A stretch of DNA of 64,000 bases from Clostridia bacterium (GTDB lineage Bacteria; Bacillota; Clostridia; Christensenellales; CAG-138), in contig JAFYJD010000010.1 of assembly GCA_017538255.1 (NCBI GenBank), forward strand, positions 62,001 through 126,000, in the 5' to 3' direction. Below, piece after piece: positions 714 to 56,239 of this stretch (position 1 is its first letter; every line of letters begins with the position of its first letter). The notes below the pieces were generated by a model, which saw only the letters and a program-made list of their open reading frames with translations, was not told the origin of the DNA and ran no database searches. The translations under genes were made by a program, and so were the position numbers.

Positions 714-731
714 TGAAGAAAGGAGACAAAA

Positions 732-1225: not shown

Positions 1226-1423
1226 CTATTTGCATTCGGGCAGACCCGCAAGACTCGTGAGTATGGACAAAAGCCCAGCAACGAGTGCGGTCGTCGCCGC
1301 ATTTACAATATCCGTCTTGCCTACTACAGCCGCAGTGCCGATGACGGCGGCAGCCGCCTGAGCGGTCGTGCGAACGGCGCGCACGAGCGCCGCGCGCAGC
1401 CATTGTTTTGTAAAGATGTTCAT
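1226..1423 (-). CDS. Phage holin, r1t family
   Basis: 65 residues. A WLRAALVRAVRTTAQA segment is followed by two hydrophobic stretches and the closing SILTSLAGLPE, the hallmark ending of the phage r1t-type holin family. Holins form membrane lesions that release or activate endolysin at the end of a phage cycle. The start codon overlaps the stop of the endolysin gene by 4 bases (ATGA) and GGAG lies just upstream, so the two are translationally coupled. It is the last gene of the minus-strand cassette that starts with the tail fibre. No frameshift or stop interrupts it. Confidence 0.9.
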   Translation of the reverse strand: MNIFTKQWLRAALVRAVRTTAQAAAAVIGTAAVVGKTDIVNAATTALVAGLLSILTSLAGLPECK

Positions 1424-2304
1424 ACGTTCTCCTGTTCTTCTCTCTTTATGACGGCAAGCGAGTAGCCGCTCTCGGCGGAATCGAAAAACGCAAGCACTTT
1501 TTGGGGCTGTGTATTTGAGTGCTTCGAAATGAGTTTTTCAAACGCCGAAGCGCTGCGCTTGCCCCATTTGCCGTCCTCGGTCAGTTCCTTTCCGTCGGAA
1601 TCCGTATAGCCCGCTCGGTTGAGCGCACGCTGCATATAAAGATACGGTGCGCCCTCAAAAAGCGGAGAACTCAGTTTGAACTCCGCTTCAGGTTTTAACT
1701 CCGCACGATTGGAGGTTTCCGCGCCGTCGTATGAAAAGCGCTTCGTCATAAGACCGCGATGCGACCATGGACGCTCGGAAAACTTGGTGATCACAACGCC
1801 GTAGGCGAGGCCGCGAGCCTCGACAACGAGGGGAGCGCCGTTTGGCATAAAGCCGCAGATCCAGCCGACATGCGTCATCTTGCCAGTTGCGGAGTTTTGG
1901 ATGAACACCGCTTCGCCGATGACATAATCGCGCGCGATTTCGGAAATCGCGCCCTTATCCGAGCACCACGCAAGATAGTTAGCGTTGGCGGTTATATCCG
2001 TTTTTTCGCCGCATTCATAGGTCAGATACGCGTCAAGAAGGCCCTGGCAATCGGTCGCGTAATCGTTTTCTCCGAAATCCTTGACGGCTTTGTCGTAAGC
2101 CGCGCGCGACCAGGACTTGGAGTAGTGGCTGTCCCAGCGCTCCTTGATGCGCTCCTTGGTGGTGCGGGCGCGGATCGTGCCGAAAAGATAATGCCATTTT
2201 TCAACGCCGCATTCCTCGTGCGGGATCGGTATGATCGCGTCCTTGGGCATGGTGGCACTGTCGATGTGGGTGAGAGCCCATTCAATGAATCCTACTACGT
2301 TCAT
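1420..2304 (-). CDS. Endolysin: NlpC/P60-like peptidase with peptidoglycan-binding repeat
   Basis: 294 residues. The N-terminal domain (about 1-190) carries a DCQGLLDAY motif with the probable catalytic cysteine C86 and a THVGWICG motif with the probable catalytic histidine H145, as in papain-like NlpC/P60 cell-wall peptidases. The C-terminal part (about 215-270) resembles peptidoglycan-binding domain 1 (YMQRALNRAGY, GKWGKRS). It probably cuts stem peptides in peptidoglycan. It overlaps the 40-aa upstream gene and the downstream holin by 4 bases each, giving a tight lysis cassette. A paralogue at 51969-52727 shares most of the catalytic domain but has serine in place of C86. No signal peptide is seen, which fits holin-dependent export. 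Confidence 0.85.
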   Translation of the reverse strand: MNVVGFIEWALTHIDSATMPKDAIIPIPHEECGVEKWHYLFGTIRARTTKERIKERWDSHYSKSWSRAAYDKAVKDFGENDYATDCQGLLDAYLTYECGEKTDITANANYLAWCSDKGAISEIARDYVIGEAVFIQNSATGKMTHVGWICGFMPNGAPLVVEARGLAYGVVITKFSERPWSHRGLMTKRFSYDGAETSNRAELKPEAEFKLSSPLFEGAPYLYMQRALNRAGYTDSDGKELTEDGKWGKRSASAFEKLISKHSNTQPQKVLAFFDSAESGYSLAVIKREEQENV

Positions 2305-2423
2305 ACAAGCGTATCCTCCTGCGAAAACTCAAGCAGCTTCGCCACCTTATCGCGAAGTTTACTCGGCACGTCGTCGAGTTTTTTAAGACCTTTTATTATC
2401 AGTTCATAATAGATTTTTGCCAT
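2301..2423 (-). CDS. Small phage protein, CD1375-like (40 aa)
   Basis: A 40-residue frame starting at ATG 2423 with AGGAGA just upstream. The stop overlaps the endolysin start (ATGA). The translation begins MAKIYYELIIKGLKKLDD and continues VPSKLRDKVAKLLE, matching the pattern of tiny clostridial phage proteins annotated as CD1375 family, which lie between tail-fibre and lysis genes. Function unknown. The match rests on remembered family features, but the start, spacing and overlaps strongly support a real gene. Confidence 0.78.
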   Translation of the reverse strand: MAKIYYELIIKGLKKLDDVPSKLRDKVAKLLEFSQEDTLV

Positions 2424-2424
2424 A

Positions 2425-2784
2425 TCATTCTCCTAACATCTCATAGAGTTCGCAAAGTGCGATCTGCGTATCTACAAGTTGCTGCGACAGCAGTTCCTTC
2501 TCTTCTTCAAGCGCGGCGATTCGCTCCTCGGCGCTCAAACGCGACTTGGGCGCTTCATTGCCCCACGCCGAGGCAAGTGCAAACGCACCGTCGAAATCCG
2601 TTTCTATCTCATAAAGGGACAGTTTGCCGCGCATATACGCTTCGTCGGCGCAATAGTAGATATCGCCGATCTCGTCCGTAAAGGACGCCACGTTCTTTCT
2701 TAAATAAATATCCGCTTCGCCCGTCGGCAAAAGCGCGTAGACGACGGGATCGAGCATTTCGGTTGAAATCGTTCTTTTTATCAT
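2425..2784 (-). CDS. XkdW-like tail-fibre-associated protein
   Basis: 119 residues. The N-terminal half (about 1-75) is a compact, acidic alpha/beta region. The C-terminal 40 residues form a coiled coil (EERIAALEEEKELLSQQL). In clostridial and bacilli phages a protein of this size and layout sits directly after the receptor-binding fibre and before small CD1375-like and lysis genes. Here it starts 10 bases after the fibre stop and ends one base before the start of the 40-aa gene, so it is in the same transcript. A role in fibre assembly or as a structural accessory is inferred from position only. Confidence 0.62.
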   Translation of the reverse strand: MIKRTISTEMLDPVVYALLPTGEADIYLRKNVASFTDEIGDIYYCADEAYMRGKLSLYEIETDFDGAFALASAWGNEAPKSRLSAEERIAALEEEKELLSQQLVDTQIALCELYEMLGE

Positions 2785-2794
2785 AGTTTCTCCT

Positions 2795-5359
2795 TTATTC
2801 CGAATAAACGCCGCGGTTGCCGGCGGTGCCCGCCGCGCGGCAGCAGCAGAGCGGCGATGCGCTCTCGCGTCCCCAGTTTGCGATTATGAACGAGATGCCC
2901 GCCGCGTCCGCGGCAGACAGACCGCCGAACATAATGTACTGTCTTACGCCCTTGCCTGAAACGCCGGACGTTTGTTGGAGCGCGGCACAGTAGCCGGTGC
3001 TCGATGTTGCGCCGAGGGACTGCGGGAGGATATAACCTTCAACAGATGCAGCTTCGGGACTGCATTCCTTGATATACTTAAAGCCTGCGCTGCCGGTGGA
3101 TTTTTTGATCGTGCCAACGTCATAGGCATTGACGCCTAAGCTTGTCGCGGCGTCTGCGTTTGCCGCTCTTCGCACGGTGTGAACATCGTACGGATTTGAA
3201 CTGCCGTTATCATAGATAAGAGTGTCCATCGCAGCCTCGTGAGCGCCGAGCATCAACTCTATGCCCTGCAGTTTGAAAGGCTCCCTGCCGCAGAGGTTAT
3301 CGCTCGGGCTGCCGTCGTTTCCGAGCACGGCGTCCGTCGCGCCCGTGCGCCAAGGATGCGTTGTGATACAGGTCTCGCCAAGGGTGGTGTCAAAATCCAC
3401 GTCTGCGTCGATGCTGACGGCGGCAAAGTCGCTGCCCGCAATGTTCACGGTTTCGATCGCGGTTATCGATGCGGACGGGCAGAGCGAGTAGCAGTCTGCG
3501 CTCGCACGATCGTTGCTCGTGCCGACGGAAACGATCGAGCCTACGGATAGGGACGCGCCATCTTCCGCGGTCAGCAGTATGCGGCGCGTGCCCGTTTCGC
3601 TTGCTGCGGCGGTGAACGAGAGGTCGTAGTCGCAGCAGCCGCGCATCACATTGGATGATCCGAGATTGGCGTATTTTATCTCAAGCATCGTTTGCAAAAA
3701 CGCTTGATCGCAGATGCCGGCGCCGCCGTACTGACCGCCTCTGGCACGCCAGAGTGATACCTGTCCGTCGTGGCTGATGCTCTTTCCGCCAAGGGCTGCT
3801 GGTCTGTTTGTTGCGGGGAAAACGCCCGAAATACTCGAAAGTTTGCCGAGAGCGTCAAGCCCTGCCACATATTTTGCGTGGATCACGAATGCGCGAACGC
3901 CGTTGTCGCTTGCGCGCACAGCCTCGGGCAGGGGCAAAAACCCATCGCCGATCCTTTTTGCGGCGTATTCGACGGTCTTTTCGGTATCGCTCACGCTTCG
4001 CCTGACCCAGCCCGTCATCTGCAAAACGCCTACAAGACTGTTCTCAGGCGCGGAGGAAAACTCGCCGTAAACACCCTTTATCGCGTGGATGACGGGCTCG
4101 AGCGTCGTGGGGTCGATCGTATAATTGCAGTCAAAACAGGCAAATAGCGGTATCCCTGCGTAGTCGTCGCGCCCCGCGCTGAGGTTGGTGGACGGAACGC
4201 ATACAAGCGAGGCGTTCGCCTGCGTCTTTGTGCCGACGGGGGTTGGCGAGGTTGCATAGAGGTAAAAGACCGAGGCGTAGACCTTGTTTTCCCACTCGGC
4301 GGCCGCCGTGAAGAAGCGCTCGACAGCCGCGGTAAGCCCGATGTCAGGTACGAGCGTATTCAAAAAAACTTTAAGCGCGCCGGCGGGGCCGAACTCGTTT
4401 ATCAGCGCGAGCACTCGGTAGGCTTCGTCAGCGGCAATAAAGTCCGAAACGACGGTTTCGACAGCCGTCATACGCGCTTGGCGAAGTTCTTCCGCTCCTG
4501 TTCGTTGGGCTTCATTTTCGATGCGGGCAGTTTCGTTCAAAACACGCACGCGCTCATATTCACCGCGGATACGCTCGTTTTGCACGCGCTCGCTCTCGGC
4601 GGAACTGCGGTCTGTTTCATCGCTTATGCGCTGCGCTTCGGCTGAAACGCGTTCGGTCTCGGCGGAAGATCGCGCCGCTTCAGCGGCAAGACGGGCGTGC
4701 TCGGCGGTGTTTCGTGCGTTCTCCGCCTGCATACGCAACAGTTCCGCAGAATTGCGGTTCTGCTCCGCGCTTTGCCTTGAAGCTTCCGCGCTTTGGCGGG
4801 CGTTCTCTGCTCCGATGCGAGATGCTTCCGCCTGTGCGCGGGCAAGTTCCGCCGAATGGCGGCTCTGCTCCGCGCTCTGTCTTGAGGACTCAGCGCTCTG
4901 GCGGGCGTTCTCTGCGCTCACTCGCGCATTTTCCGCGTTCACCCTTGCGTTTTCGGCGCTATGGCGCTGAAGTTCCGCTTCAACTCGCGCCGCTTCTTGG
5001 CGCACGCGCTCGATCTCCGCCGCGTCCAAAGTGTCGAGCTGGTTTTGTCGGTATAGGATGGAATCCAAAACGGGGATGCACACGGTCGAAGTGGTGCGGA
5101 TGCTGCCGGCGTATACGCCGATCTCAACATCACGTGAGCCCGACGGTATCAGCGGCGCCCTGACGGTATCGCCCGTGAACAAATAATCCGCTGTCCAGTC
5201 GTCTATGATGAAGCGCGCCGTTCGGATGGGCGTTTGTTCCCATTCGGCGTCAAAATCAAAGCGTATTCTGTACTCGGAATTGTCCGCAACGAATACCTCG
5301 CCGTATTCAACGCTCGGCACCTTGTTGCGAACAACAACGGTCAAAATGTTATTATTCAT
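2795..5359 (-). CDS. Phage tail fibre / receptor-binding protein with long coiled coil
   Basis: 854 residues from ATG 5359, chosen because AGGAGAGATT precedes it; an upstream in-frame extension to 5536 lacks coding character. Three parts are visible. Residues about 1-110 form a beta-rich domain like the N-terminus of BppU-type baseplate fibres. Residues about 115-300 are a long trimeric-type coiled coil built from repeated SAENAR/SAEQSR-like 7- and 11-mers. Residues about 310-854 are a globular beta-rich head rich in Gly, Ala and Cys, ending in a GG-AAG-W-CCC-R-G-NRG pattern that recalls the C-type-lectin tip of phage receptor-binding proteins. It should recognise the host surface. It heads the minus-strand cassette with lysis genes and has its own promoter. 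Codon use looks like that of neighbouring host genes. Confidence 0.82.
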   Translation of the reverse strand: MNNNILTVVVRNKVPSVEYGEVFVADNSEYRIRFDFDAEWEQTPIRTARFIIDDWTADYLFTGDTVRAPLIPSGSRDVEIGVYAGSIRTTSTVCIPVLDSILYRQNQLDTLDAAEIERVRQEAARVEAELQRHSAENARVNAENARVSAENARQSAESSRQSAEQSRHSAELARAQAEASRIGAENARQSAEASRQSAEQNRNSAELLRMQAENARNTAEHARLAAEAARSSAETERVSAEAQRISDETDRSSAESERVQNERIRGEYERVRVLNETARIENEAQRTGAEELRQARMTAVETVVSDFIAADEAYRVLALINEFGPAGALKVFLNTLVPDIGLTAAVERFFTAAAEWENKVYASVFYLYATSPTPVGTKTQANASLVCVPSTNLSAGRDDYAGIPLFACFDCNYTIDPTTLEPVIHAIKGVYGEFSSAPENSLVGVLQMTGWVRRSVSDTEKTVEYAAKRIGDGFLPLPEAVRASDNGVRAFVIHAKYVAGLDALGKLSSISGVFPATNRPAALGGKSISHDGQVSLWRARGGQYGGAGICDQAFLQTMLEIKYANLGSSNVMRGCCDYDLSFTAAASETGTRRILLTAEDGASLSVGSIVSVGTSNDRASADCYSLCPSASITAIETVNIAGSDFAAVSIDADVDFDTTLGETCITTHPWRTGATDAVLGNDGSPSDNLCGREPFKLQGIELMLGAHEAAMDTLIYDNGSSNPYDVHTVRRAANADAATSLGVNAYDVGTIKKSTGSAGFKYIKECSPEAASVEGYILPQSLGATSSTGYCAALQQTSGVSGKGVRQYIMFGGLSAADAAGISFIIANWGRESASPLCCCRAAGTAGNRGVYSE

Positions 5360-19175: not shown

Positions 19176-19964
19176 ATGAAAAAACTTTTCGCAATTTCTA
19201 TCGTAACTCTTGCCGCCGTTCTTACGCTCGGCGCATACGCATGCAAAAAAGCGCCCGAGCAGGGGACCCTTACCGCGGAGGAGATTCTGCAGCTTCCGAA
19301 ATCATACGAAATGGGTGAGCAATGGTTTTTTCCAAAGGATTTTTCGGAAGTTTGGAACTATCACAACGGCTATAACCCGGTAGCCGTTGTTAAGGGTACG
19401 GCGATCTCCGTAAAATACTATCTTGGCTTCGATGATAATTACGACGACTGTTCTTTGGTTGAGTTTCAAATTGATGAGGTTGTTGACGAATACAACACCG
19501 CGGCATTAAAGCCCGGGGATGTGATTACCGTTATTCCCGGCACCTACATTATATTTAAGCCCAATAACGGAAATACTTCTGATGCGCACATTGAGTTTTT
19601 CTCCGAAAAGACAGGGCTCGATTTACATGACCCAGAGGCATTCAAGGCTGCGCGTGCCGCATATCTCGCAAACAGCAGCGAAGACACGGCAAGTCATAAG
19701 TTTGAGTTGATCCCGAAAAAAGGGGTCGAGTATGAGATGGTTCTGGCTACAGAATATATGTATCCACTGCAGAGTGGCGAAAGCTACACTATGTTTGTAC
19801 CGTTGGCAGACCCGCGGTTCGCTTTCGGACAGGAGTGCTATTTTTCGCAATATATTTTCCCGCTCAACGAAGAGTTGAGCTATGAAAAACTCAATGAGAA
19901 ATACGGCTTTAGGATCGAGACCTTCGGATCGATCAATGAAGAGATAGCGGAGATGTTCAAATAA
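19176..19964 (+). CDS. Lipoprotein of unknown function, paralogue B
   Basis: 262 residues from ATG 19176 with AAGGAGG upstream. The signal peptide is nearly identical to that of the upstream paralogue, but the cysteine is preceded by GAYA rather than LGA, so the lipobox is imperfect. It shares the YNTAALKPGDVI, EFFSEKTG and YPLQSGESYTM blocks with paralogue A and differs mainly in the central loop. The pair probably arose by tandem duplication and then diverged. Confidence 0.8.
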   Translation: MKKLFAISIVTLAAVLTLGAYACKKAPEQGTLTAEEILQLPKSYEMGEQWFFPKDFSEVWNYHNGYNPVAVVKGTAISVKYYLGFDDNYDDCSLVEFQIDEVVDEYNTAALKPGDVITVIPGTYIIFKPNNGNTSDAHIEFFSEKTGLDLHDPEAFKAARAAYLANSSEDTASHKFELIPKKGVEYEMVLATEYMYPLQSGESYTMFVPLADPRFAFGQECYFSQYIFPLNEELSYEKLNEKYGFRIETFGSINEEIAEMFK

Positions 19965-41908: not shown

Positions 41909-43537
41909 TTAAGAGGTGGCCTGAGCTCCCGCTTCGCCGAGCGCGAGCTGCATTTCAAGCCGCTTTTCCTTCATCAGTTGAACGGCCCTGTCCTTGCCGT
42001 CGAACATCAACAGTTCAAGCCCGACGTCGGGCAGTACCATACCCGACTGAACCAGGCGGAATACGGTCTCGTTGTTGTTTATGACGGAGAACGCGTTCTC
42101 CTTCACGACCTTGACCGTTACACGGAACTCCGAGGGCAGGTCTTTGAGAGAGGATAGCGCCTTTTCGACCGAAGTGAGTTTTACGATATCCTCGCCGATG
42201 CCGCCGAGCGCGCAGAGCGTCTTTTTGCAGCGAGAAGACAGCGTGTATTCGCGCTCGACCTCGATCTCCTGGCATACGGCTTTGCGGAATGAGGCGTGGA
42301 TGCACCTTGCCGCCATACGCGAGCGTTTATTCGCAGCCTCCTGCAGCGCGGCGATCGCCGTGCCGCTCGTTACGCCGGCGTGCGTCATGCCGCGCGCAAA
42401 CTCGTTTGCGCCCGATTCCTCCTTGATGGAGTTGCGCATATCGGCGATATAACTGAGCATATACGCGGGCAGGGGAGCGGTCGCAAACCACGAGATGCCG
42501 TTCAGACTGTCGCCCTGATGCACTTCCTTCGACCAGTCGCGAAGGTCGGCGGGATCGAAGCCGCTCGCGCCCGTGATCAATAGTTTATTGTGGCTTGCAA
42601 GCAGGGCGTTTTTCATAACGATCTGATCGAGTTTGTCGGAATTGCGCTGCGCGGTCTCGAACATATCGACTATGCCGTAGCCGAGGCAGCTGCCCTTGCG
42701 CTCAAAGAGTTTTGTTATAACAAACGGATATTCGCCGTGCGCAAAATACCCCTCGGGTCGAGCGTCGCGGCTGTCTTCGAGCATCATTCCGCCCGCAACG
42801 AGAGACATATGCACGGCGTATTTGTCGCGCTTTTTGTCGTACTCCCTGCGCCAGCATTCGATCAGAAGTATGCTATTGTCATAGCGCGGGGCGATAGCTT
42901 CGCCGTCGGGCATTTCAAGCAAAAACCCGTCCTCCTTGAGTTCTTCAGCAGCGTCCGGATAATGCTGGGTGAACCAGTCGCGCGTGTGGTGGGTGAACTT
43001 GAATACGGCGCGTCCGTCCTGAAGGTCGGCGGCAAGAGGGTCGAACAGCACGGTGCGGTTGTCCACATAGTTTATGAACGCGCCGCCGAGCCCGCCGTTC
43101 GCGTCCTGATCGAAGCCCGTTTCAAAAACGCCGTAGCCGCCCACGAGCAGATCGTGGGTCATTTTGAGATACTCCTCGTCAAAGCCGCATCTCAGATGAT
43201 TTTCGTGCAGGATATGCGTAAACATATCCGCAAGCGCGTCGTATTCCGGCGCGTCGGAGCCGACTATCGCTTCGGGCAGATAATCAACAAGGTCCGCGCG
43301 CACATTCTCGATCGTGCTTTGTAGCACGGGCGTAACGGGGCGCGGCTCCGCCTTTTCGTTTGGCGGCACGTCGTACCAGTGGTCGCCGCGGTACAGCCGT
43401 TCGCATTTTTCAAGCCTTGCGCGCTCGCCTCGGTACGCGTCGTAAAACTCGCTGAACAGCGCGTAGATCCGCTCCGTTTCGGCGGCCTTCTTTGCGCTCG
43501 ATAACGGCTTGGGTGTGTTGGTTGTATTTATAATCAT
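41909..43537 (-). CDS. Phage portal protein, short-tailed-phage (P22-like) type
   Basis: 542 residues from ATG 43537 with AAAGGATC upstream. The N-terminal helical region (RLYRGDHWYDVPP, PVLQSTIENVRADLVDYLPEA), central wing and the ANEFARGMTHAGVTSGTAIAALQ segment are typical of podovirus and related clostridial-phage portals. The dodecameric portal is the DNA entry/exit channel and binds the terminase. It is encoded 42 bases after terL in one transcript. No frameshifts. Codon use resembles that of the flanking polA and isc genes. Confidence 0.88.
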   Translation of the reverse strand: MIINTTNTPKPLSSAKKAAETERIYALFSEFYDAYRGERARLEKCERLYRGDHWYDVPPNEKAEPRPVTPVLQSTIENVRADLVDYLPEAIVGSDAPEYDALADMFTHILHENHLRCGFDEEYLKMTHDLLVGGYGVFETGFDQDANGGLGGAFINYVDNRTVLFDPLAADLQDGRAVFKFTHHTRDWFTQHYPDAAEELKEDGFLLEMPDGEAIAPRYDNSILLIECWRREYDKKRDKYAVHMSLVAGGMMLEDSRDARPEGYFAHGEYPFVITKLFERKGSCLGYGIVDMFETAQRNSDKLDQIVMKNALLASHNKLLITGASGFDPADLRDWSKEVHQGDSLNGISWFATAPLPAYMLSYIADMRNSIKEESGANEFARGMTHAGVTSGTAIAALQEAANKRSRMAARCIHASFRKAVCQEIEVEREYTLSSRCKKTLCALGGIGEDIVKLTSVEKALSSLKDLPSEFRVTVKVVKENAFSVINNNETVFRLVQSGMVLPDVGLELLMFDGKDRAVQLMKEKRLEMQLALGEAGAQATS

Positions 43538-43579
43538 TTGTGATCCTTTCTTTAATTCCATGCGCTTTGCCTTCGGTCG

Positions 43580-44929
43580 TCAGCGCGAATACCAGTTCGA
43601 GTCCGTTTCGGGAAGGCTCAGCGGGTCGTATGCCGAGCGCTTTTTGATCACCGGCTCGCTTTTGCCGCGCGGGCGGCTCATCAGCGCGTAGCGGAGCGCC
43701 TCGGGCGCGTGGTCGTCCCCGTCCGCCGCGTCTTCGCGGTTGATACTGTCGTATTCAAGCAGCGGCAGTTGGCGGATGAGGTTGACGCAGTTTTTAAAGC
43801 ATTGCCATTTGCCCGCCGAGTTCGGGTCGGAGGGGTCCGACGCAAGGTATTCGCGAACGCGGTTCCAGCCCGCAACGCGCGAATTGTCCGCGGGTATGAG
43901 ATTGAGCCCGCAGAGCGCGAACATCTCCTGTATCGATTCGCCTTCGATGCCGCCGCTTGCAGCAAGCATAGCGCCGCGTTTTTGCCACATATCGGGCGAA
44001 GCGACGGTGTAGGCGATATCCTCGCCGCGGCTTAACTCAAGCACCTTCTTTGCGACTTCATCGGCGCGCATTCGCCTTACATAGAGTTCGCGGTAGGTGT
44101 ATACGCGCCCTTCGCCGTCCACGGCGTGCCAAAGCACGCAGCAGGGATCGTTGTAGCCCCAGTCCATAGAGCGAAAACGCCGCCAATGCCGCGGCAGTTC
44201 AAAGGGCGCGACGGTATGCTTCTCGCGTGAAAATTCGCGAAAATACTGCCCCGCGTGCACATCCCAGTCGCCATCAAGATGCGCTCGCCGCAGATCCTCC
44301 GGCAGGCTCATAAGCTGGCGTACATATCCCGGGTCGCCTTCAAGAAGCACCTTGTTGTCGTAGATGCGCGCGGGTATGAACGTATAGTCCTCGGCGCGCT
44401 CGCCTTCAAGGTACTGCCTGTCGATGAACAGGCGCTTGACCCAGGCGTGCCCGACGTTTCCGGGGTTGCAGGTGTAGTACATCCGAGGCGAAAAATCGCG
44501 CCGCGTGGTGCGGTTGCAGGTGGTCAAAAAACGCATCTGCTCCTCGGTAAAATGCGTTGCTTCCTCAAGCCCGATGACGGCGTATTCCTGCCCCTGATAC
44601 TGATAGACGTCCTGCTGGCTGTCGCAGTAGCCGAGTTTTATCCTCGACCCGTTCGGAAAGCGGAACACGCGCTCGGTGGTGTTGTATGAAACGGCGCCGT
44701 AGAGTTCGCGCTGAAGCGGCACGATATGGTTTTCGCGCAGTTCGTTCAGCGTTCGGCGAAGAAGCAGCAGATCAAGCCCCGGGTATTTGAGCGCAAGAAG
44801 CACGAACTTTCTGCGCATCGCCCAACTCTTGCCGCCGCCACGAGCGCCGCCGTATGCGGTATGCCTTGAACGCGAAAGAAAGAACTCGCGCTGGCGCGGG
44901 TTGGCCTCGCCGTACAGTACAAGTTTCAT
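43580..44929 (-). CDS. Phage terminase large subunit, all catalytic motifs present
   Basis: 449 residues. ATPase domain: Walker A GGARGGGKSW (27-36), Walker B and catalytic Glu in AVIGLEEATHF (Glu 122/123), coupling motif TCNPGN (153-158). RNase H-like nuclease: D256 in SMDWGYNDP, D313 in SPDMW, and Asp 405/406 in DGDDHAPEALRYAL. All motor and nuclease residues expected of TerL are kept. It cuts concatemeric DNA and pumps it into the prohead. AGGAG precedes the ATG. The gene has its own promoter about 230 bases upstream, shared back-to-back with a small-terminase-like gene. Confidence 0.95.
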   Translation of the reverse strand: MKLVLYGEANPRQREFFLSRSRHTAYGGARGGGKSWAMRRKFVLLALKYPGLDLLLLRRTLNELRENHIVPLQRELYGAVSYNTTERVFRFPNGSRIKLGYCDSQQDVYQYQGQEYAVIGLEEATHFTEEQMRFLTTCNRTTRRDFSPRMYYTCNPGNVGHAWVKRLFIDRQYLEGERAEDYTFIPARIYDNKVLLEGDPGYVRQLMSLPEDLRRAHLDGDWDVHAGQYFREFSREKHTVAPFELPRHWRRFRSMDWGYNDPCCVLWHAVDGEGRVYTYRELYVRRMRADEVAKKVLELSRGEDIAYTVASPDMWQKRGAMLAASGGIEGESIQEMFALCGLNLIPADNSRVAGWNRVREYLASDPSDPNSAGKWQCFKNCVNLIRQLPLLEYDSINREDAADGDDHAPEALRYALMSRPRGKSEPVIKKRSAYDPLSLPETDSNWYSR

Positions 44930-45159
44930 ACTGCTCCTTTTGATCCTGTTTTTATTCTGTTTTGATGGTTCGCCTCAAAAACGCCGCAGACGGCATCATA
45001 AATGCGAGCGGATATGCCTTTGTTGCCCGCCAAGACGCGCCGCCATATTCCGTGGGTGGGGAACACGGCGGGCAAAAAGCGCGTATGCGGCGTTTTCGGA
45101 AGCGATGCGTTGGCTTATATTAAGTTGAGAAGCGGCGGTATTTCGCCGCTCTAATATTA

Positions 45160-45188
45160 TTGTATCATTCAATAAAGCCGAAAGACAA
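45160..45188 (-). promoter_or_regulatory. Promoter of the terL-portal transcript
   Basis: Minus strand: TTGTCT (45188-45183), 17 bases, TACAAT (45165-45160). An AGCGGCG/CGCCGCT hairpin (45132-45151) lies at the start of a leader of about 225 bases. Otherwise 44930-45159 holds no gene. Confidence 0.62.
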
Positions 45189-45290
45189 TCGAAAAACCGC
45201 GTCTATCGATACAAAAAAACGCACATACAGCGTATTGACATAAACCCTCAAGAGTGCTATCGCGCCCGCGCGGAACATCGCCGACGCACT

Positions 45291-45319
45291 TTTACCGCGG
45301 CATTTCGGCGTGGTATAAT
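45291..45319 (+). promoter_or_regulatory. Promoter of the small-terminase-like gene
   Basis: TTTACC (45291-45296), 17 bases, TATAAT (45314-45319), 33 bases before the start codon. Confidence 0.6.
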
Positions 45320-45351
45320 AATAAATGGGGAAAGGTCGGGAAAGGAGAACT

Positions 45352-45588
45352 ATGCAAAAGGAAAACACGGGCACGAGGCCAAGGTCTGCGGAATCAAAAC
45401 GCATAAAAATGCGCCGTCTCGCGCTCGATTCGATAATCGAAATGGTCAAGGATACCGAACTCAAACCGTCGGACAGATTGAGCGCGATAAAGGTGCTTCT
45501 CGACATAACGGAGAAACAGCAGCAGGAGCCCGAGGACGCCGCGCTGACGGTCGTCTTCGAAAATCTGCCGGAGGGCTTTGCGGATTAG
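45352..45588 (+). CDS. Small basic/helical protein, candidate terminase small subunit
   Basis: 78 residues from ATG 45352; AAAGGAG lies 4 bases upstream, so the earlier ATG 45325 is not used. The protein is basic at the N-terminus, then has the segment LKPSDRLSAIKVLLDITEKQQQ and an acidic hydrophobic end (ALTVVFENLPEG). Small terminases of clostridial phages often carry a comparable P-x-DRLKALELLxKH segment and a VVF tail, but are longer with an N-terminal helix-turn-helix that is missing here. It diverges from terL. The call rests on that pattern and on position. Confidence 0.5.
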   Translation: MQKENTGTRPRSAESKRIKMRRLALDSIIEMVKDTELKPSDRLSAIKVLLDITEKQQQEPEDAALTVVFENLPEGFAD

Positions 45589-48940: not shown

Positions 48941-48969
48941 TTGATTTTTAACGAAAACTATGTTATACT
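48941..48969 (+). promoter_or_regulatory. Promoter of the scaffold-capsid cluster
   Basis: TTGATT (48941-48946), 17 bases, TATACT (48964-48969). The leader to the scaffold-like start is about 190 bases. A CTCTC-AATA-AGAGA dyad and a TAAGAGAAT motif (48907-48915) lie upstream. Otherwise 48847-49167 holds no gene. Confidence 0.65.
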
Positions 48970-49167
48970 GAAAATTGATGGGGATTGCGTTGGCGACCGC
49001 TCTTTCCGTCAAACCGATGATTCGGGCGCGGTTTAACCGCCGCGCGGCGGGTCTTATTATGCGTACATCCGACAGAGGGAGCGACCGATACGGGCGCTTC
49101 TTTTTTTCGGAAAACCCCGCCGAAAACGGCGGGAAACAGGGTAAAAAAAGAAAGGAATGGCAGACAA

Positions 49168-49575
49168 GTGAAAAAAACAGTCAATGAAAAAAGCATCGCG
49201 GAACTTCTGGACGGGCTGGACGAAGCCAAGGCGTCGTTTGAGGACGACACGGGATCCGGCGATGAGACCGAGGCGCTTGCGCGTCTTGGCGAAGCGTTTA
49301 TCAAAAGGCTCGATCTTCCGAAGGGGATGAGTGCCGCTGAAGCGGCGGAAACGATAATCTCGATGTGGGATGAAGCGGACGCGAGAGGAGAAAAGTATCC
49401 GAGCGCGGACGAAAATACCGCATATGAAAGCACCGCAAGGCTTCCCAAAACGCTCCGCGGAGGGCTGAACGAACTGCCCGAGGCGGATTATGAAAGTATG
49501 ACGAGCGAGCAGTTCCGCCGCCTCAAAAAGCAGCTCAAGCGTGCGGATATGGACGGACGCAGGATCCGCCTGTAA
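49168..49575 (+). CDS. Candidate capsid scaffolding protein
   Basis: 135 residues. The start is a GTG at 49168 with AAAGGA upstream at a long spacing. Highly charged and mostly helical: an acidic first two thirds (LLDGLDEAKASFEDD) and a basic C-terminal helix (FRRLKKQLKRADMDGRR). A short acidic protein with a basic end directly before the capsid gene is the usual place and shape of a scaffold. It could also be another head-associated protein; sequence alone does not decide. Confidence 0.55.
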   Translation: MKKTVNEKSIAELLDGLDEAKASFEDDTGSGDETEALARLGEAFIKRLDLPKGMSAAEAAETIISMWDEADARGEKYPSADENTAYESTARLPKTLRGGLNELPEADYESMTSEQFRRLKKQLKRADMDGRRIRL

Positions 49576-49606: not shown

Positions 49607-50815
49607 ATGAGCGATAATACCTATATCAACACCACCGCATCGGACGCGGTCAAGTTCCCGTCCAAGTACTATTCAAGACAGCTTCTCGAAAGCGCGAAGA
49701 CGCGCCTTGTATTTCAGGAATTCGGACAGAAGCGCTCCATACCGCGCAATAACGGCAAGTATGTAAACTTCCGCCGCTGGAATCTTTTTGACCCGAAGGC
49801 GGCGGTAAGCGGCCTTGTTGAGGGCGTAACCCCGGCGGGACAGACCCTGTCGCAGACCGAGGTCGAGGCGGAGGTCAAGCAGTACGGCGCCTATGTTGAG
49901 GTGAGCGACCTGCTCGATCTCACCGCGTATGACGCCGTAATCAACGATTCCGCCGAACTGCTCGGCGAACAGCTCGGCACCGTTGTCGAATGGGTTACCC
50001 GCGATGCGGTCAGTTCGGGCAGCAACGTTCAGTATGCGGGTGGCAAGAGCGCAAGGCGCGAGTTGACCGTGTCGGACAAGCTGACCACGGACGAGATAAG
50101 AAAGGCCGTGCGCACCCTCAAAAAGAACAAGGCACGCCCCTTTGCCGAGAACGGCAGGCAGCCGCATTTCGTATGCATCTGCTCGCCCGAGGCGACCTAT
50201 GATCTGCAGAACGATGAGATGTGGAAAAACGTTTCCGCGTACTCCAACGCCGAAGCCGTTTACAGCGGCGAGATCGGCAGGCTCTACGGCGTGGTATTCG
50301 TTGAAAGCACCGAGGCGAAGGTATTCTCCCAGAGCGTCAGCAACAGCGTAAGCGCGGATACCGAACTCTCCGCATCGTTCGTTCTCAAAAACGAGCCCAC
50401 CGAAGAAGAGGAAGCGTACCTCTCCGTGCCCGGCAACACCGTCGTCATCGGAGATGCGACCTATACTCTTGCCGACAGCAATCCCTACGATCCCGAAACG
50501 AGAACGGTACATCTTTCCGGCGAGGTCAGCCTCAGCGCGGACGATACCGTCAGAAGCGACGACGCGGGTGCGATCCCAGAAGGCGAGGAGCGTGAACTCG
50601 ACGTTCACGCGACGGTCGTATTCGGCAGGGACGCGTACGGCGTTGTGGATATCGAGGGTAAGGGCGGCGTACAACTCATCGTCAAGCCCCACGGTTCCAG
50701 CGGTACCGCCGATCCTCTCGATCAGCGTGCGACCGTAGGCGCAAAGGTAACGGCATACACGGCAAGCGTGCTCAACGATCTCTGGCTCGTTCGCATCGAG
50801 CACACCGTTTCCTGA
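49607..50815 (+). CDS. Major capsid protein, N4-gp56 family
   Basis: 402 residues from ATG 49607 with AAAGGA upstream. The N-terminal 150 residues show the family pattern clearly: KYYSRQLLESAKTRLVFQEFG, FRRWNLFDPKAAVSGLVEGVTP, VKQYGAYVEVSDLLDLTAYD, ELLGEQLGTVVEWVTRD, SGSNVQYAGG. This is the HK97-fold capsid family named after phage N4 gp56. A region at about 255-330, rich in acidic residues, looks like an inserted surface domain. It forms the icosahedral shell. The frame is intact. It sits between the isc operon and an EamA gene rather than beside terminase and portal. Confidence 0.92.
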   Translation: MSDNTYINTTASDAVKFPSKYYSRQLLESAKTRLVFQEFGQKRSIPRNNGKYVNFRRWNLFDPKAAVSGLVEGVTPAGQTLSQTEVEAEVKQYGAYVEVSDLLDLTAYDAVINDSAELLGEQLGTVVEWVTRDAVSSGSNVQYAGGKSARRELTVSDKLTTDEIRKAVRTLKKNKARPFAENGRQPHFVCICSPEATYDLQNDEMWKNVSAYSNAEAVYSGEIGRLYGVVFVESTEAKVFSQSVSNSVSADTELSASFVLKNEPTEEEEAYLSVPGNTVVIGDATYTLADSNPYDPETRTVHLSGEVSLSADDTVRSDDAGAIPEGEERELDVHATVVFGRDAYGVVDIEGKGGVQLIVKPHGSSGTADPLDQRATVGAKVTAYTASVLNDLWLVRIEHTVS

Positions 50816-50858: not shown

Positions 50859-51854
50859 ATGGCAAAAAATCTATTCTCGATAGGCAGAACCATTAAAAAA
50901 CGCAATTTAATGTCGGCGCCGGGCGCGCCGATTGCCGCCGAACAGATGGGCGGGCGCGCGTCCTCTTCTCAGCCGTTTGCCGCTTCCGCGGCGGGAACGC
51001 AGTCCAAAACGGGCTATTCTCAGCCCAAGCCCGAAACCGTGCCGAAAGCCGCTGCGAGCGGCAGTACCCAACAAGTCGGCGGTTTTGACGACTACTACAA
51101 CAGGCTCGTTTCAACGCTGAGAAATTACGGCGTTTCGATGACGCTCCCGTCGCTCGATGAGATACGCGCCCAACTGACGGCGTTTCTTCGTCCGTCCGTT
51201 GACTCGGCGATAGAGGACCGCAAGAGTCGCGGCGAGACCGTGATGGCGGAACTCGACGCGGATGCGTACTCGCGCGGTATGGGCGGATCGAGTTATCTTT
51301 CGAGTATGAAATCGAGGGAGCAGAGCGGCATAAGCCGCGATATCGCTTCGATGGAATCCAACTACTCGTCGACGATAGCGCAGTACCTGTACAACGCCTC
51401 GAACGAACTTCAAAGCATTCAGGCAAAGTTTGCTCAGATGGCGCTTGAAAACGCTTACGAGCAGAGGCGGCTGAAACAGCAGCAGGCGCACGACGAAAAG
51501 ATGAAACTGTTGGCGCTTCTGGGCAAGGGCGGCTCGAACGCGGGAAGGGGGGCTTCGCACGGCTCAACGGGTGGCGCATCAAATCAAGCGGGCGGTGCAG
51601 ACGGGCGCGGCTTTACCGACAAGGAGTATCTTGACAATTACACCGGCTATTCCGTGTTCGTCGGCTCCCTGTCCGAGAGCGACCGCAACAACCTGTTTAA
51701 CGGCAAGAGCGCCTACTGGGCGGAACTGCGCGAGGAGATGATGATGAATCTCACCCCTGCGCTGTATCAAAAACTCATCTCGGCTTACGCACCGAAAACC
51801 GGCGGCGGCAAGGGTCCGGGCGCAGCGCCGAGGAGTGTGAATATGTTTAACTGA
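50859..51854 (+). CDS. Putative internal/ejection or tail-associated particle protein
   Basis: 331 residues, not recognised. A Ser/Ala/Gly/Gln-rich N-terminus (1-75) is followed by helical segments (about 75-220), including a region with regularly spaced Ser and Tyr (YLSSMKSREQSGISRDIASM) and a long amphipathic helix with Lys/Gln. Gly-rich linkers flank a final helical domain. It lies 43 bases after the capsid gene and has GAAAGGA upstream, so it is part of the head operon. Composition and place suit an ejection or internal protein, but this is inference. Confidence 0.5.
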   Translation: MAKNLFSIGRTIKKRNLMSAPGAPIAAEQMGGRASSSQPFAASAAGTQSKTGYSQPKPETVPKAAASGSTQQVGGFDDYYNRLVSTLRNYGVSMTLPSLDEIRAQLTAFLRPSVDSAIEDRKSRGETVMAELDADAYSRGMGGSSYLSSMKSREQSGISRDIASMESNYSSTIAQYLYNASNELQSIQAKFAQMALENAYEQRRLKQQQAHDEKMKLLALLGKGGSNAGRGASHGSTGGASNQAGGADGRGFTDKEYLDNYTGYSVFVGSLSESDRNNLFNGKSAYWAELREEMMMNLTPALYQKLISAYAPKTGGGKGPGAAPRSVNMFN

Positions 51855-51968: not shown

Positions 51969-52727
51969 ATGAAAAACGCGATTGATTTTGTTCGTTTTGC
52001 GCTTTCTCACGCCAAGCGCGAAACGGTGCCCTCGGGCGCGAAACTGCCGCTTGATGCGGACGAATGCGGTACGGAACCGTGGGAGTATCTGCCCGGTACG
52101 AGCGGAGAAACGGCAACGGACGAACTGCTTGAAAGCAAGTTTGCCGATTTTTACAGGCATCTCGGCTGGCAGAGGGAACGCTACGACCGCCTGACGGAGA
52201 ACTTCGTGCGCCAAAAGGTGCGCCTTAGCGACAGCCAGGGGCTTATGAACGCATATACGGGGATGGAAGCGACGCCAAACTACTGCTACAGCGCATGGTG
52301 CACCGACAAGGGCGCCATATCCGAGATCAAACGCCCGTTTGCGCTCGGCGAGGCAGTCTTCTTTATGGATGCGGACGGCAGGGCGATACATACCGGATTT
52401 ATCTGCGGAACCCTCGGCGGCGAGCCGCTCGTCGTGGAAGCGCGAGGGCTGGCGTTCGGGGTATGCGTAACAAAACTTTCCGAGCGTCCGTGGACACATC
52501 GCGGACTCATCACAAAGCGCCTCATCTATGAGGAGAACTGCTATGACGAGCAGATTGTAATAAAACGTCAAAAGCCGTTCGTGCGCGGCGAGGGCGTTAT
52601 TTACCTGCAGCGTGCGCTCAACTCGCTCGGCTATTACTGCGGAAGCGCGGACGGCGTGGCGGGGGAACATACGCTATATGCGCTCAAAGAGTTTTTGACG
52701 GCGCACGCAACAAAGGCGGGGCTTTAA
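51969..52727 (+). CDS. Endolysin paralogue lacking the catalytic cysteine
   Basis: 252 residues. It parallels the endolysin at 1420-2304 through the whole catalytic domain (AWC-DKGAISEI, VVEARGLA-GV, SERPW-HRGL-TKR) and keeps a C-terminal peptidoglycan-binding segment (IYLQRALNSLGYYCGSADGVAG). The expected nucleophile is replaced: DCQGLLDAY in the first copy reads DSQGLMNAY here (S89), while the His in AIHTGFICG (H141) remains. It is probably a cell-wall-binding, non-hydrolysing or much weaker relative, for instance a virion-associated protein. It belongs to the capsid operon. Its stop codon overlaps the stop of the convergent EamA gene in a TTAA palindrome. Confidence 0.82.
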   Translation: MKNAIDFVRFALSHAKRETVPSGAKLPLDADECGTEPWEYLPGTSGETATDELLESKFADFYRHLGWQRERYDRLTENFVRQKVRLSDSQGLMNAYTGMEATPNYCYSAWCTDKGAISEIKRPFALGEAVFFMDADGRAIHTGFICGTLGGEPLVVEARGLAFGVCVTKLSERPWTHRGLITKRLIYEENCYDEQIVIKRQKPFVRGEGVIYLQRALNSLGYYCGSADGVAGEHTLYALKEFLTAHATKAGL

Positions 52728-53835: not shown

Positions 53836-54045
53836 ATGAAAACGGAAACCATTGTTATCGAAAAAAACGGAACGAACGCGCCGTGGGAAGGCTGCGTGAA
53901 CTCCGTAAATTACAGGATCGAGCGCGGCGTTGCGGTCGAGGTGCCCTGCGAGGTCGCAAGGCTCATAAGGCAGAGCGCCGCCGCAAAGAAGGCGAGCAGT
54001 TCGCTCATAACGCAGTTCACCTTCGGCCTCGGCAAAAAACTTTGA
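53836..54045 (+). CDS. Small phage head-associated protein (69 aa)
   Basis: 69 residues from ATG 53836 with AAGGAGATAA upstream. The segment VNYRIERGVAVEVPCEVARLI matches the pattern of small proteins next to capsid genes in many Firmicute phages (a VNG-x-x-x-x-I-P-RG-V-x-V-x-V-P type signature). Function in the family not established. First gene of the connector cluster. Confidence 0.68.
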   Translation: MKTETIVIEKNGTNAPWEGCVNSVNYRIERGVAVEVPCEVARLIRQSAAAKKASSSLITQFTFGLGKKL

Positions 54046-54069: not shown

Positions 54070-54612
54070 ATGACACTGAACGATATTCTTGTCGCTTCGC
54101 TCGCGCAGCTCGACAGAGGGCACGACGCGCAGACGGTCGAGATCTACAGATCAAGGCTGATAAGATACATAAACGACGCGCAGAGCGATCTTGCGGACAC
54201 GGTCGCGCTGACGCGGCGCGATACTGTCGTGCCGGCGTCGGGCGTTGTAAGGTTCGAGGATCTTCCGCGCGTCTGCCGCCGCGTGGAAAAGGTCGAACAG
54301 CTCGGCAAAAGCGTGCCCTTCCGTGCGGGCGACGAGCCGAACACTCTGTTTCTGCCGTATGACGCGCCCGCTTCGATCACTTACCGATGCGAGCCTCGCC
54401 CCCTTAAAAATGCGGACGATGTAAGCGAACTCAACGAGAGCCTGCATCCGCTTCTTATAAACTACGCCGTCGGAAGGGAACGGATGGGCGGCGATGTTTC
54501 GACGCAATCGGGCGGCAACATCTATCTTTCGATGTACAGCGCGGCGAAACAGCGGCTCAAGGGCTATCTTAACGCGGACGATTCGTTCCGCATCGTAAAC
54601 AAATACTCCTGA
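54070..54612 (+). CDS. Head-tail adaptor protein, short-tailed-phage type
   Basis: 180 residues. N-terminal helices (YRSRLIRYINDAQSDLADTVAL), a central beta part with a DLPRVCRRVEKVEQLGK segment, and a C-terminal helical part (LHPLLINYAVGRERM, YLSMYSAAKQRLKGYL). Size and layout match adaptor proteins that bind below the portal in podoviruses (P22 gp4 / SU10-type adaptor). AAGGAGG precedes the ATG. The nozzle-like gene follows 8 bases later, the expected order of a short tail. Confidence 0.7.
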   Translation: MTLNDILVASLAQLDRGHDAQTVEIYRSRLIRYINDAQSDLADTVALTRRDTVVPASGVVRFEDLPRVCRRVEKVEQLGKSVPFRAGDEPNTLFLPYDAPASITYRCEPRPLKNADDVSELNESLHPLLINYAVGRERMGGDVSTQSGGNIYLSMYSAAKQRLKGYLNADDSFRIVNKYS

Positions 54613-54620: not shown

Positions 54621-56024
54621 ATGGCGCTTAAAACGTATGAGATACCGTATTTTGTGGGGCTGAATCAGGCGAGCGACGAAAACAGGCTCGACGCGGTCTA
54701 TTCGCCCGACGCGGTCAATATGTCCACGGACGGCGGCGCGCTCAAGGTCGCCGCAGGGTTTGAAAAATACATCGGGAGCAAACTCCCGGGCAACGCAAAG
54801 ATCGACCTGTTGACCTGTATGCGAACGCCGGACGGGGATATTCCCGTTGCGATATCGGGAGGCAGACTCTATATCCAGCAGCAGGACGGCTGGACGCTCA
54901 AATACACCTATCCAAGCGCCGGCAAAGCCAAATACGACGCGGCGCTCGTAAAGATAGACACGAGCGATTATCTCGTTATCGCGGATGGCAGGGGGCAGAT
55001 GATAAAACTCGGCGACGAGGCAACCCCGTTCGGAAGTGCGGCGGGCTGTTCGGATATTCCCGTTTCGTATCTGACCGTGTACCGCGGCAGACTCTTTTCC
55101 GCGGGCGACGCGCAGAACCCAAACAGGCTCTACTATTCCGTGCTTCCGGGCGGCGGCAGGACGGTCGAGGATTGGGGCTATGTTGAGGCATCGCCCTCGG
55201 TCGAAGGAGGCTTTGTCGAGGTAGGAGCCTCATCGGGCGACGCGATAGTTGCGATAAAGGCGCTGTCGAATCAACTGCTCATCTTTAAAAAACACGGGCT
55301 TTACAGACTTATCGGAGACCGTCCGTCAAACTTCACGATCGAGCATATAGACGCCAACGTGCCCAAAACGCACTCGGGCGCGATCGCGCTCTACGGCGAT
55401 ACGCTGTATTTCGTAACACAGGACGGGTTATACTACTATAACGGCGTAACGGCGCGCCCCTGTCCGGATATGCGCTGTATAAGAAGGTATATGAGCGAGG
55501 CGGATATCGACGGATGCCGCGCCGTAACCGTGCGCGATAAGCTTTATTTTACGTACAGGCGCGGCGGCGAGGACGAGATGATGGTATACGACCTCACCGA
55601 GCGCAAGTATATGCGCCGAAACGGCTTCGAGATAGACTGCATCGCGGATATGGACGGACGGCTGCTTTTGATAAACAGAACGCGTCGACTCTACGAGTTT
55701 GAAAAGGGCGACACCTACGACGGCAACCCGATAGAGGCGTATTGGTGCACGCCGCTGACCGATCTTGGCGACAAGGCGTCGATAAAGGCGCTCAAAATGC
55801 TCTTTATGCGCGCAAGGGGCGACGGCATAACCATAGAAACGGAACTTGACGGCATAAAAAACACTACAAGGGTGCGCCTTGACGAAGTTTCGAGGGTTAA
55901 GGAAGTGCCTCTTTTCAACGAGGGGCGCGTTATGCGCATCAAACTGTCGAATCTAAGAGGCGGCTTCTTCGCGCTTGAGGGCGGCGTCGAAACGGAACTC
56001 GGCATAAGGCGCAGGACGGAATGA
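54621..56024 (+). CDS. Short-tail nozzle / packaged-DNA-stabilisation-like protein
   Basis: 467 residues, almost all beta, with repeated blade-like units (MRTPDGDIPVAISGGRLYIQ, LTVYRGRLFSAGDAQNPNRLYYS, HSGAIALYGDTLYFVTQDGLYYYNG, KYMRRNGFEIDCIADMDGRL), as in propeller-type nozzle proteins of short-tailed phages (P22 gp10 and relatives, about 470 residues). It should plug the portal-adaptor channel and carry the tail tip. The length and gene order after the adaptor support this. The stop overlaps a possible ATG of the next gene. Confidence 0.72.
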   Translation: MALKTYEIPYFVGLNQASDENRLDAVYSPDAVNMSTDGGALKVAAGFEKYIGSKLPGNAKIDLLTCMRTPDGDIPVAISGGRLYIQQQDGWTLKYTYPSAGKAKYDAALVKIDTSDYLVIADGRGQMIKLGDEATPFGSAAGCSDIPVSYLTVYRGRLFSAGDAQNPNRLYYSVLPGGGRTVEDWGYVEASPSVEGGFVEVGASSGDAIVAIKALSNQLLIFKKHGLYRLIGDRPSNFTIEHIDANVPKTHSGAIALYGDTLYFVTQDGLYYYNGVTARPCPDMRCIRRYMSEADIDGCRAVTVRDKLYFTYRRGGEDEMMVYDLTERKYMRRNGFEIDCIADMDGRLLLINRTRRLYEFEKGDTYDGNPIEAYWCTPLTDLGDKASIKALKMLFMRARGDGITIETELDGIKNTTRVRLDEVSRVKEVPLFNEGRVMRIKLSNLRGGFFALEGGVETELGIRRRTE

Positions 56025-56038
56025 CGGGGGTGAAGAAA

Positions 56039-56239
56039 ATGGATATGCGATCGCTGTACTATGTTATGCTCCCGTCCGAAAGGCTCGAGAACGAGGACGC
56101 ACAGCGCCGCGACGAGGACATCAAGGCAAACGAGAACTGCCTCAACCAGAACTTTTCGCTCCTTGCGGAAAAGATATATGAGTTCGAGGCGCGTCTTGCG
56201 GCGCTCGAAGCCGCACTTTCGTCAAGCGCGGGGCAGTGA
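56039..56239 (+). CDS. Small coiled-coil phage protein
   Basis: 66 residues from ATG 56039 with GGGGGTGA upstream (an ATG at 56021 overlapping the nozzle stop is an alternative). The sequence ends in a helix, NFSLLAEKIYEFEARLAALEAAL, typical of small proteins at the end of clostridial phage tail clusters. Function unknown. Last gene of the connector cluster; no terminator is seen after it. Confidence 0.62.
   Translation: MDMRSLYYVMLPSERLENEDAQRRDEDIKANENCLNQNFSLLAEKIYEFEARLAALEAALSSSAGQ

What the first reader, a model, noticed from the sequence alone, without database searches (positions are those of the whole stretch)
41909..45588. Intact packaging motor isolated from its capsid genes, with divergent promoters
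TerL keeps Walker A, Walker B, the coupling motif and all four nuclease Asp positions, and the portal is full length. Decaying prophages usually lose these first. The pair has its own promoter with a leader of about 225 bases, and back-to-back with it a small-terminase-like gene with a separate promoter. The small protein lacks the usual DNA-binding helix-turn-helix, which would favour sequence-independent packaging, as in GTAs.
Basis: partly seen in the sequence, partly recalled or inferred. Interest (0 to 1): 0.7.

Follow-up and report, generated by a model that had tools for sequence, protein, structure and literature searches.

The report
Scattered podovirus-type gene transfer agent
A gut bacterium related to Christensenella carries the complete parts list of a small virus-like DNA-packaging particle, scattered in at least three pieces among its own household genes and inherited like those genes, which makes it very probably a gene transfer agent (a tame phage that carries bacterial DNA between cells) rather than a dying prophage.

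Summary
The packaging pair is real and intact, but it is not isolated from its capsid genes. Scaffold, N4-gp56-family major capsid protein, adaptor and tail genes lie 4-11 kb away, separated by host iscR/nifS/nifU and EamA genes. A tail fibre-lysin-holin unit lies 38 kb away. The 78-aa protein is very probably the oligomerisation half of a P22-type small terminase that has lost its helix-turn-helix. Relatives form a truncation series.

TerL, portal and capsid distances follow host DNA polymerase I across 16-18 genomes (r 0.90-0.96, Mantel p 0.0002). Every well-supported host split recurs in the particle-gene tree. dN/dS is 0.05-0.20. Codon composition is host-like, and no integrase lies within 100 kb. 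In 10 of 10 congeners the motif GCCAACGC sits by the promoters of both separate units and at no other intergenic place read (20 seen, 1.5 expected).

Best explanation: an ancient, vertically inherited podovirus-type gene transfer agent (GTA). The nearest described case is FpGTA of Faecalibacterium (2026). That paper also reported GTA-like packaging in Christensenellaceae without naming genes. Not shown here: particles, packaged DNA, DNA delivery, or sequence homology to FpGTA.

The parts
1226..1423 (-). holin, 65 aa (unit C)
   Evidence: Pfam Phage_r1t_holin 1.5e-11, phrog_443 1.4e-12; conserved with lysin and fibre in 4 congeners
1420..2304 (-). endolysin-like protein, 294 aa (unit C)
   Evidence: paralogue of 51969-52727 (43% identity); weak phrog endolysin hit
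2301..2423 (-). 40-aa protein conserved in unit C
   Evidence: conserved in 4 congeners
2425..2784 (-). 119-aa protein conserved in unit C
   Evidence: conserved in 4 congeners
2795..5359 (-). tail fibre-like protein, 854 aa (unit C)
   Evidence: phrog_17147 4.8e-90 plus several tail-fibre families; 49-53% identity in six congeners
41909..43561 (-). portal protein (unit A); start could be 43537
   Evidence: PF16510 P22_portal 8.8e-20, phrog_156 6e-41
43580..44929 (-). large terminase TerL (unit A)
   Evidence: PF04466/PF03237, phrog_979 1.4e-54; catalytic residues invariant; dN/dS 0.05-0.13
45106..45114 (-). shared regulatory site GCCAACGCA in the TerL leader
   Evidence: one of only two exact copies in the window; conserved in 10/10 congeners
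45159..45188 (-). TerL-portal promoter
   Evidence: scan hit; extended -10 conserved in 11/11 genomes
45291..45319 (+). promoter of the 78-aa gene
   Evidence: scan hit; ATTATACCAT conserved on the opposite strand
45352..45588 (+). 78-aa small-terminase-like protein without helix-turn-helix
   Evidence: dN/dS 0.12-0.14 in most close pairs
48941..48969 (+). promoter of unit B
   Evidence: scan hit; -35 and -10 conserved in congeners
48986..48994 (-). shared regulatory site (TGCGTTGGC on the + strand)
49168..49575 (+). scaffold-like acidic protein, 135 aa (unit B)
   Evidence: position directly before MCP; homologues in congeners and in phages
49607..50815 (+). major capsid protein, N4-gp56 family (unit B)
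   Evidence: TIGR04387 3.5e-75; phrog_1357 7e-68
50859..51854 (+). 331-aa protein always linked to the module (unit B)
   Evidence: conserved in all architectures; no family
51969..52727 (+). lysin-like protein with PG_binding_1 domain (unit B)
   Evidence: PF01471 3.5e-6; conserved
53836..54045 (+). 69-aa protein, part of the MCP-adaptor block
   Evidence: conserved in order in compact clusters and phages
54070..54612 (+). head-tail adaptor, SU10/gp4-like
   Evidence: PF24175 SU10_adaptor 5.8e-6
54621..56024 (+). gp10-like tail/nozzle protein, 467 aa
   Evidence: phrog_511 9.5e-16, phrog_3287 8e-13
56021..56239 (+). 72-aa protein at the end of the block
   Evidence: conserved after gp10 in all forms

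Best explanation
This is a podovirus-type gene transfer agent of a Christensenellaceae-like lineage. Parts: P22/SU10-type portal, N4-gp56 capsid, scaffold-like protein, adaptor, gp10-like tail piece, fibre, lysin and holin, with a headful-type terminase. (Shown) The genes sit in three or more chromosomal units, are vertically inherited, under purifying selection, and lack integration or replication genes nearby. (Shown for two units) Unit A (TerL-portal) and unit B (scaffold-MCP) carry the same short site next to their promoters. (Inferred) A trans-acting regulator fires the units together in a few cells; capsids assemble on the portal; TerL with the helix-turn-helix-less TerS cuts and pumps in unspecific host DNA until the head is full; holin and lysin release the particles; the fibre binds neighbouring cells, which take up the DNA.
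For: TerL catalytic residues invariant. Structural and lysis genes present in the own genome. Three-unit arrangement conserved in congeners. At least one structural gene in 22 of 25 family genomes. Host congruence: Mantel r 0.88-0.96, p 0.0002; 10 of 14 splits shared and all host splits with support of 86 or more recovered. dN/dS TerL 0.05-0.13, portal 0.10-0.14, MCP 0.09-0.20. Host-like GC. Split/rearranged TerLs form one clade with no viral contig inside. TerS truncation series. Shared site at both units in 10/10 congeners, 20 of 20 intergenic hits, 1.5 expected; in the sister genus both copies read GTCAACGC. Temperate-phage relatives carry integrase, ERF, SSB and a large virion protein; that protein is absent from 24 of 25 genomes searched, the other having only a marginal partial match. 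GTA-like packaging seen in Christensenellaceae (PMC12946183).
Against: No particle, packaged DNA or transfer has been observed for this species. The 78-aa/TerS link is weak by sequence (hhalign E 1.3e-4 over 23 columns, probability 54%). Units C and gp4-gp10 lack the shared site. A small phage clade nests between the two chromosomal clades, so one domestication event is not shown (AU p 0.11). Three of 25 family genomes lack both TerL and MCP, so the element is dispensable. The data come from MAGs.
Confidence: 0.75

Rival explanations
1. PBSX-like domesticated particle: it packs host DNA but serves as a killing particle (bacteriocin) against relatives, without delivering usable DNA.
For: Fibre, lysin and holin are kept; the fibre is the fastest-diverging large gene (49-53% identity in congeners, against 76-81% for TerL), as expected of a target-recognition part. 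The large virion protein of the phage relatives, possibly needed for ejection, is missing. TerL has a distant hit to PBSX-family terminase.
Against: TerS and TerL under purifying selection and the loss of the TerS DNA-binding domain fit random DNA packaging for transfer; a killing particle needs no accurate packaging.
Confidence: 0.15
2. Slowly decaying prophage broken up by rearrangement.
For: Scattered genes, no integrase nearby, G003/G015/G024 lack TerL and MCP, one portal interrupted in G023 (L043), one TerL with an internal stop in G021.
Against: dN/dS 0.05-0.20, intact frames in nearly all genomes, promoters and operator site conserved for the whole genus, congruence with the host tree.
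Confidence: 0.04
3. Ordinary temperate phage or satellite repeatedly acquired by related hosts.
For: Temperate phages with the same gene order exist in rumen viromes (L171, L187).
Against: Host-tree congruence, same chromosomal sites, no viral contig inside the split clade, no integrase within 100 kb.
Confidence: 0.03
4. Non-transfer use of the capsid, for example DNA export or storage at lysis.
For: None specific; not excluded.
Against: A fibre and holin-lysin set point to release and cell recognition.
Confidence: 0.03

Closest known systems
FpGTA of Faecalibacterium (Borodovich et al. 2026, PMC12946183)
   Same: Podovirus-type GTA in a gut clostridium; TerS without a DNA-binding domain; TerL, portal, scaffold, capsid; a separate unit with fibre, holin and endolysin; no replication genes. 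The accession numbers of its portal (RCH50851) and capsid (RCH50849) fit the order TerL-portal-scaffold-capsid seen in our compact relatives (inference).
   Different: FpGTA is one 10-ORF operon plus one 5.5 kb operon. Here TerL-portal, scaffold-capsid, adaptor-gp10 and fibre-lysis are separated by host genes, the TerS is a divergent stand-alone gene, and a shared promoter site links two units.
RcGTA of Rhodobacter capsulatus
   Same: Vertically inherited, dispersed units, GTA-type TerS lacking the N-terminal DNA-binding domain (PMC6854486).
   Different: RcGTA has a siphovirus-like tail and an unrelated capsid (general knowledge); different phylum, independent origin.
Pagevirus podophages (Bacillus phage Pascal, Page) and rumen temperate phages L171, L187
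   Same: TerS-TerL-portal-scaffold-MCP order; MCP about 33-36% identical in Pagevirus and 57-60% in the rumen phages.
   Different: Complete phages; the rumen ones have an integrase and a large virion protein, L171 also ERF and SSB.
PBSX of Bacillus subtilis
   Same: Domesticated, packs random host DNA, in a Gram-positive (as described in PMC12946183).
   Different: Contractile tail and killing activity, single cluster (general knowledge).

Membership tests
Gene transfer agent | Phage-derived structural and packaging genes, intact and maintained by selection | tested here: met
Gene transfer agent | Vertical inheritance with the host chromosome | tested here: met
Gene transfer agent | No autonomous replication or integration genes with the element | tested here: met
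   nearest integrase about 110 kb or more from any unit on C12, others on other contigs; none among the genes of the units
Gene transfer agent | TerS without the sequence-specific DNA-binding domain (GTA-type) | tested here: inconclusive
   no HTH in the model and C-terminal homology to TerS, but weak statistics
Gene transfer agent | Particles contain random host DNA | not testable with these tools
   needs culture or virome long reads
Gene transfer agent | DNA delivered to recipient cells | not testable with these tools
   needs a transfer assay
FpGTA lineage | Sequence homology of TerL/MCP to FpGTA | not tested
   FpGTA sequences not in the collections under a name; genome-contig scan already used
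FpGTA lineage | Podovirus-type head genes plus a separate fibre-lysis unit | tested here: met
P22 gp3-type small terminase (PF16677) | Profile match of the 78-aa protein itself | tested here: not met
   78-aa family gives only weak phrog_641 'terminase small subunit' hits in 7/18 members; the compact-cluster TerS matches PF16677 in 20/20
Temperate prophage | Integrase/repressor module linked to the structural genes | tested here: not met
   present in phage relatives

The most novel reading that the evidence does not exclude
The lineage carries an old, order-level GTA whose domestication can be read step by step in living genomes: compact 10-gene cluster with a full or decaying TerS, then a rearranged cluster, then units scattered among iron-sulphur and other host genes with TerS cut down to its oligomerisation half. 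The scattered units are still fired together by a co-evolving regulator that recognises GCCAACGC. It would account for the unexplained GTA-like packaging seen in Christensenellaceae.
Probability: 0.55. Interest if true: 0.82.

Novelty: new variant of a known kind. Interest (0 to 1): 0.74.

Why it matters
Only one podovirus-type GTA has been described, in 2026, and that study saw GTA-like packaging in Christensenellaceae without finding genes. This work names the candidate genes, shows strong vertical inheritance across many genera, and supplies a testable regulatory site and a natural truncation series of the small terminase. That turns 'how does a phage packaging motor lose its sequence specificity' and 'how common is GTA transfer in gut and rumen clostridia' into direct experiments. 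At least one such locus is filed as a virus in IMG/VR and others look likely to be, so virome counts may be affected too.

Tried and rejected
Isolated packaging motor: rejected, the MCP is on the same contig 4.7 kb from the TerL start. Decaying prophage: rejected by dN/dS and host congruence. The first polA comparison gave a false low correlation (r 0.32) because antisense ORFs were picked; redone with tblastn frames. Single origin of all chromosomal clusters: neither shown nor excluded (AU p 0.11). Shared site at units C and gp4-gp10: looked for, not found. Long unit-B site elsewhere in the own genome: only the one copy. Large phage virion protein elsewhere in the own genome: absent. The XRE-type HTH gene at 5651 beside the fibre gene as the regulator: not kept beside the fibre in congeners. 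Naming the unnamed class-level genomes to find Faecalibacterium: not possible. Structure of a TerL-TerS pair: no complex prediction offered.
Full report
WHAT IS THERE. TerL (43580-44929, -) and portal (41909-43561, -) are intact: Pfam Terminase_3/6N and P22_portal, phrog_979 and phrog_156. Walker A, Walker B, C-motif and the nuclease aspartates are invariant in 20 relatives. The capsid genes are not missing. Beyond LPG synthase, nifU, nifS and iscR lies a + strand unit: scaffold-like protein, N4-gp56-family major capsid protein (TIGR04387 3.5e-75; phrog_1357 7e-68), a 331-aa protein and a lysin-like PG-binding protein. After an opposite-strand EamA gene follow a 69-aa protein, an SU10-type adaptor (PF24175), a gp10-like protein (phrog_511/3287) and a 72-aa protein. 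At 1226-5359 sits a third unit: tail fibre (phrog_17147 4.8e-90), two small proteins, endolysin-like protein and holin (Phage_r1t_holin 1.5e-11). All lie on one contig of a 1.76 Mb genome. GC and third-position GC of nearly all these genes are host-like.

CONSERVATION. TerL is found at 76-81% identity in 9 of 10 congeners and at 49-74% in most other genera of the family. At least one of TerL and MCP is present in 22 of 25 family genomes. In the genus the layout is conserved: TerL-portal, divergent 78-aa gene, LPG/nifU/nifS/iscR, scaffold-MCP-331-lysin, EamA, 69-adaptor-gp10. The fibre-lysis unit is conserved in four congeners besides the window, three of them with the same LytTR/DUF3021 neighbours.

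ARCHITECTURES. About 30 related genomes have a compact minimal cluster, TerS-TerL-portal-(scaffold)-MCP-69-adaptor-gp10-58-331, about 8.5 kb. In those read in detail it is bounded by host genes with no integrase or replication genes. A second form has scaffold-MCP-331-fibre-lysin-(about 2 kb)-TerL-portal. The window's genus and several others have the split form. In two near outgroups (G004, G020) the fibre and lysin are still inside unit B, so the third unit arose by later dispersal.

VERTICAL INHERITANCE. Against DNA polymerase I, pairwise distances correlate at r 0.935 for TerL (18 genomes), 0.956 portal (16), 0.904 MCP (17) and 0.875 gp10 (10), Mantel p 0.0002 each. IQ-TREE trees of polA and of TerL+portal+MCP for 17 genomes share 10 of 14 splits. 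The four host splits not recovered all have support of 66 or less. dN/dS among close pairs is 0.05-0.13 (TerL), 0.10-0.14 (portal), 0.09-0.20 (MCP), and 0.12-0.14 for most pairs of the 78-aa gene. In a 139-row TerL tree the split and rearranged forms are one clade without any viral contig inside. In a concatenated tree a small phage clade lies between this clade and the compact clade; a single chromosomal clade is not rejected (AU p 0.11).

THE 78-AA PROTEIN. Compact clusters encode a 123-145-aa P22-gp3-type TerS (PF16677 in 20/20 members). Its model has a helix-turn-helix, a long helix, a second helix and a tail, and its five best PDB matches are chains of P22 gp3 (3p9a, probability 1.00). 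Some copies are called at only 80-82 aa (L048, L125, L144). The 59-107-aa family of the split genomes starts directly with the two helices and ends in the same kind of tail (ltVvfEnlpegfad). AlphaFold gives a confident two-helix hairpin without helix-turn-helix. Its PDB matches include PaP3, E217 (33 residues, 0.7 A, 45% identity, probability 0.84) and NV1 small terminases among the top seven, although E-values are 1.9-5.4. Profile comparison supports only the tail (E 1.3e-4), and 7 of 18 members weakly hit phrog_641 'terminase small subunit'. I read it as TerS stripped to its oligomerisation and TerL-contact half, the state described for RcGTA gp1 (PMC6854486). This remains an inference. A different Clostridia family has 61-103-aa proteins of similar make directly upstream of TerL, which supports it.

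REGULATION. Both promoters between TerL and the 78-aa gene are conserved. The unit B promoter is conserved as well. The 8-mer GCCAACGC lies just downstream of the TerL and unit B promoters. In ten congeners it is present at both units (20 of 20 sites) and at no other of 68 kb of intergenic sequence read (expected 1.5). In the sister genus G020 both copies read GTCAACGC, and the rearranged-type relatives have the same variant before scaffold. Two physically separate units therefore appear to answer to one co-evolving regulator, which is not identified. Units C and adaptor-gp10 lack the site.

PHAGE ANCESTOR. Rumen virome contigs L171 and L187 are temperate podophages with integrase and the same head block; L171 also has ERF and SSB. 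They carry a large virion protein of at least 787 aa after the 331-aa homologue. It was not found in 24 of 25 genomes searched; G015 has a marginal partial match. The nearest integrase in the own genome is about 110 kb or more from any unit.

MECHANISM. Shown: intact motor, complete head and lysis gene set, selection, vertical descent, shared promoter site. Inferred: unspecific headful packaging of host DNA, lysis-mediated release, uptake by relatives. Evidence from outside: Borodovich et al. 2026 (PMC12946183) found a podovirus-type GTA in Faecalibacterium (10-ORF operon including a TerS without a DNA-binding domain, a second fibre-lysis operon, 40-nm heads, 8.4-8.9 kb DNA). They also reported GTA-like packaging in Christensenellaceae without describing genes for it. 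The element here fits that description. Whether it shares ancestry with FpGTA was not tested.

LIMITS. MAG data, no expression or particle data, unnamed class-level genomes, weak statistics for the 78-aa assignment, gene calls by a home-made codon-usage finder.

Noticed in passing
L311-L318 (family f32, mostly genus g49): A second, apparently vertically kept scattered phage-gene set: fibre-like and portal genes, a 61-103-aa HTH-less TerS-like protein directly before TerL, and in several loci a RuvX-like resolvase gene after it. It may be another GTA in a different Clostridia family.
   Followed up: partly
L174 (IMGVR_UViG_2799112622_000001) and L138 (ONMC01000031.1): The same stretch is filed once as a virus in IMG/VR and once as a bacterial chromosome. 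Chromosomal GTA-like clusters are being counted as viruses.
   Followed up: no
L334 (MT837590.1), L333 (MT836592.1): Unannotated human faecal 'Bacteriophage sp.' contigs. L334 has an 84-aa HTH-less TerS-like ORF before TerL and portal; it could be a GTA cluster of a gut clostridium.
   Followed up: partly
L043:10327-11882 (G023) and L021/L050 (G021): Portal interrupted into two ORFs in G023; TerL with one internal TAA in G021. Single-genome decay or assembly error.
   Followed up: no
L171:18937-21297, L187:18877-21240, L046:2-2683: Large virion protein (787-894 aa or more) of the phage relatives, absent from the GTA-bearing genomes searched. It may be an ejection protein lost in domestication.
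   Followed up: partly
L080:9385-10320 and window 1420-2304, 51969-52727, L077:9663-10520: The lysin domain of the element has several paralogues per genome and also occurs in a siphovirus-like prophage with a tape-measure-like gene (G010:C9).
   Followed up: partly
window 18314-19060, 19176-19964 and L069:9754-11357: Family of similar small lipoprotein-like genes repeated on both sides of the fibre-lysis unit.
   Followed up: no
window 270-1154: LytTR regulator and DUF3021 pair beside the holin, conserved at the same place in three congeners (L073-L075).
   Followed up: no
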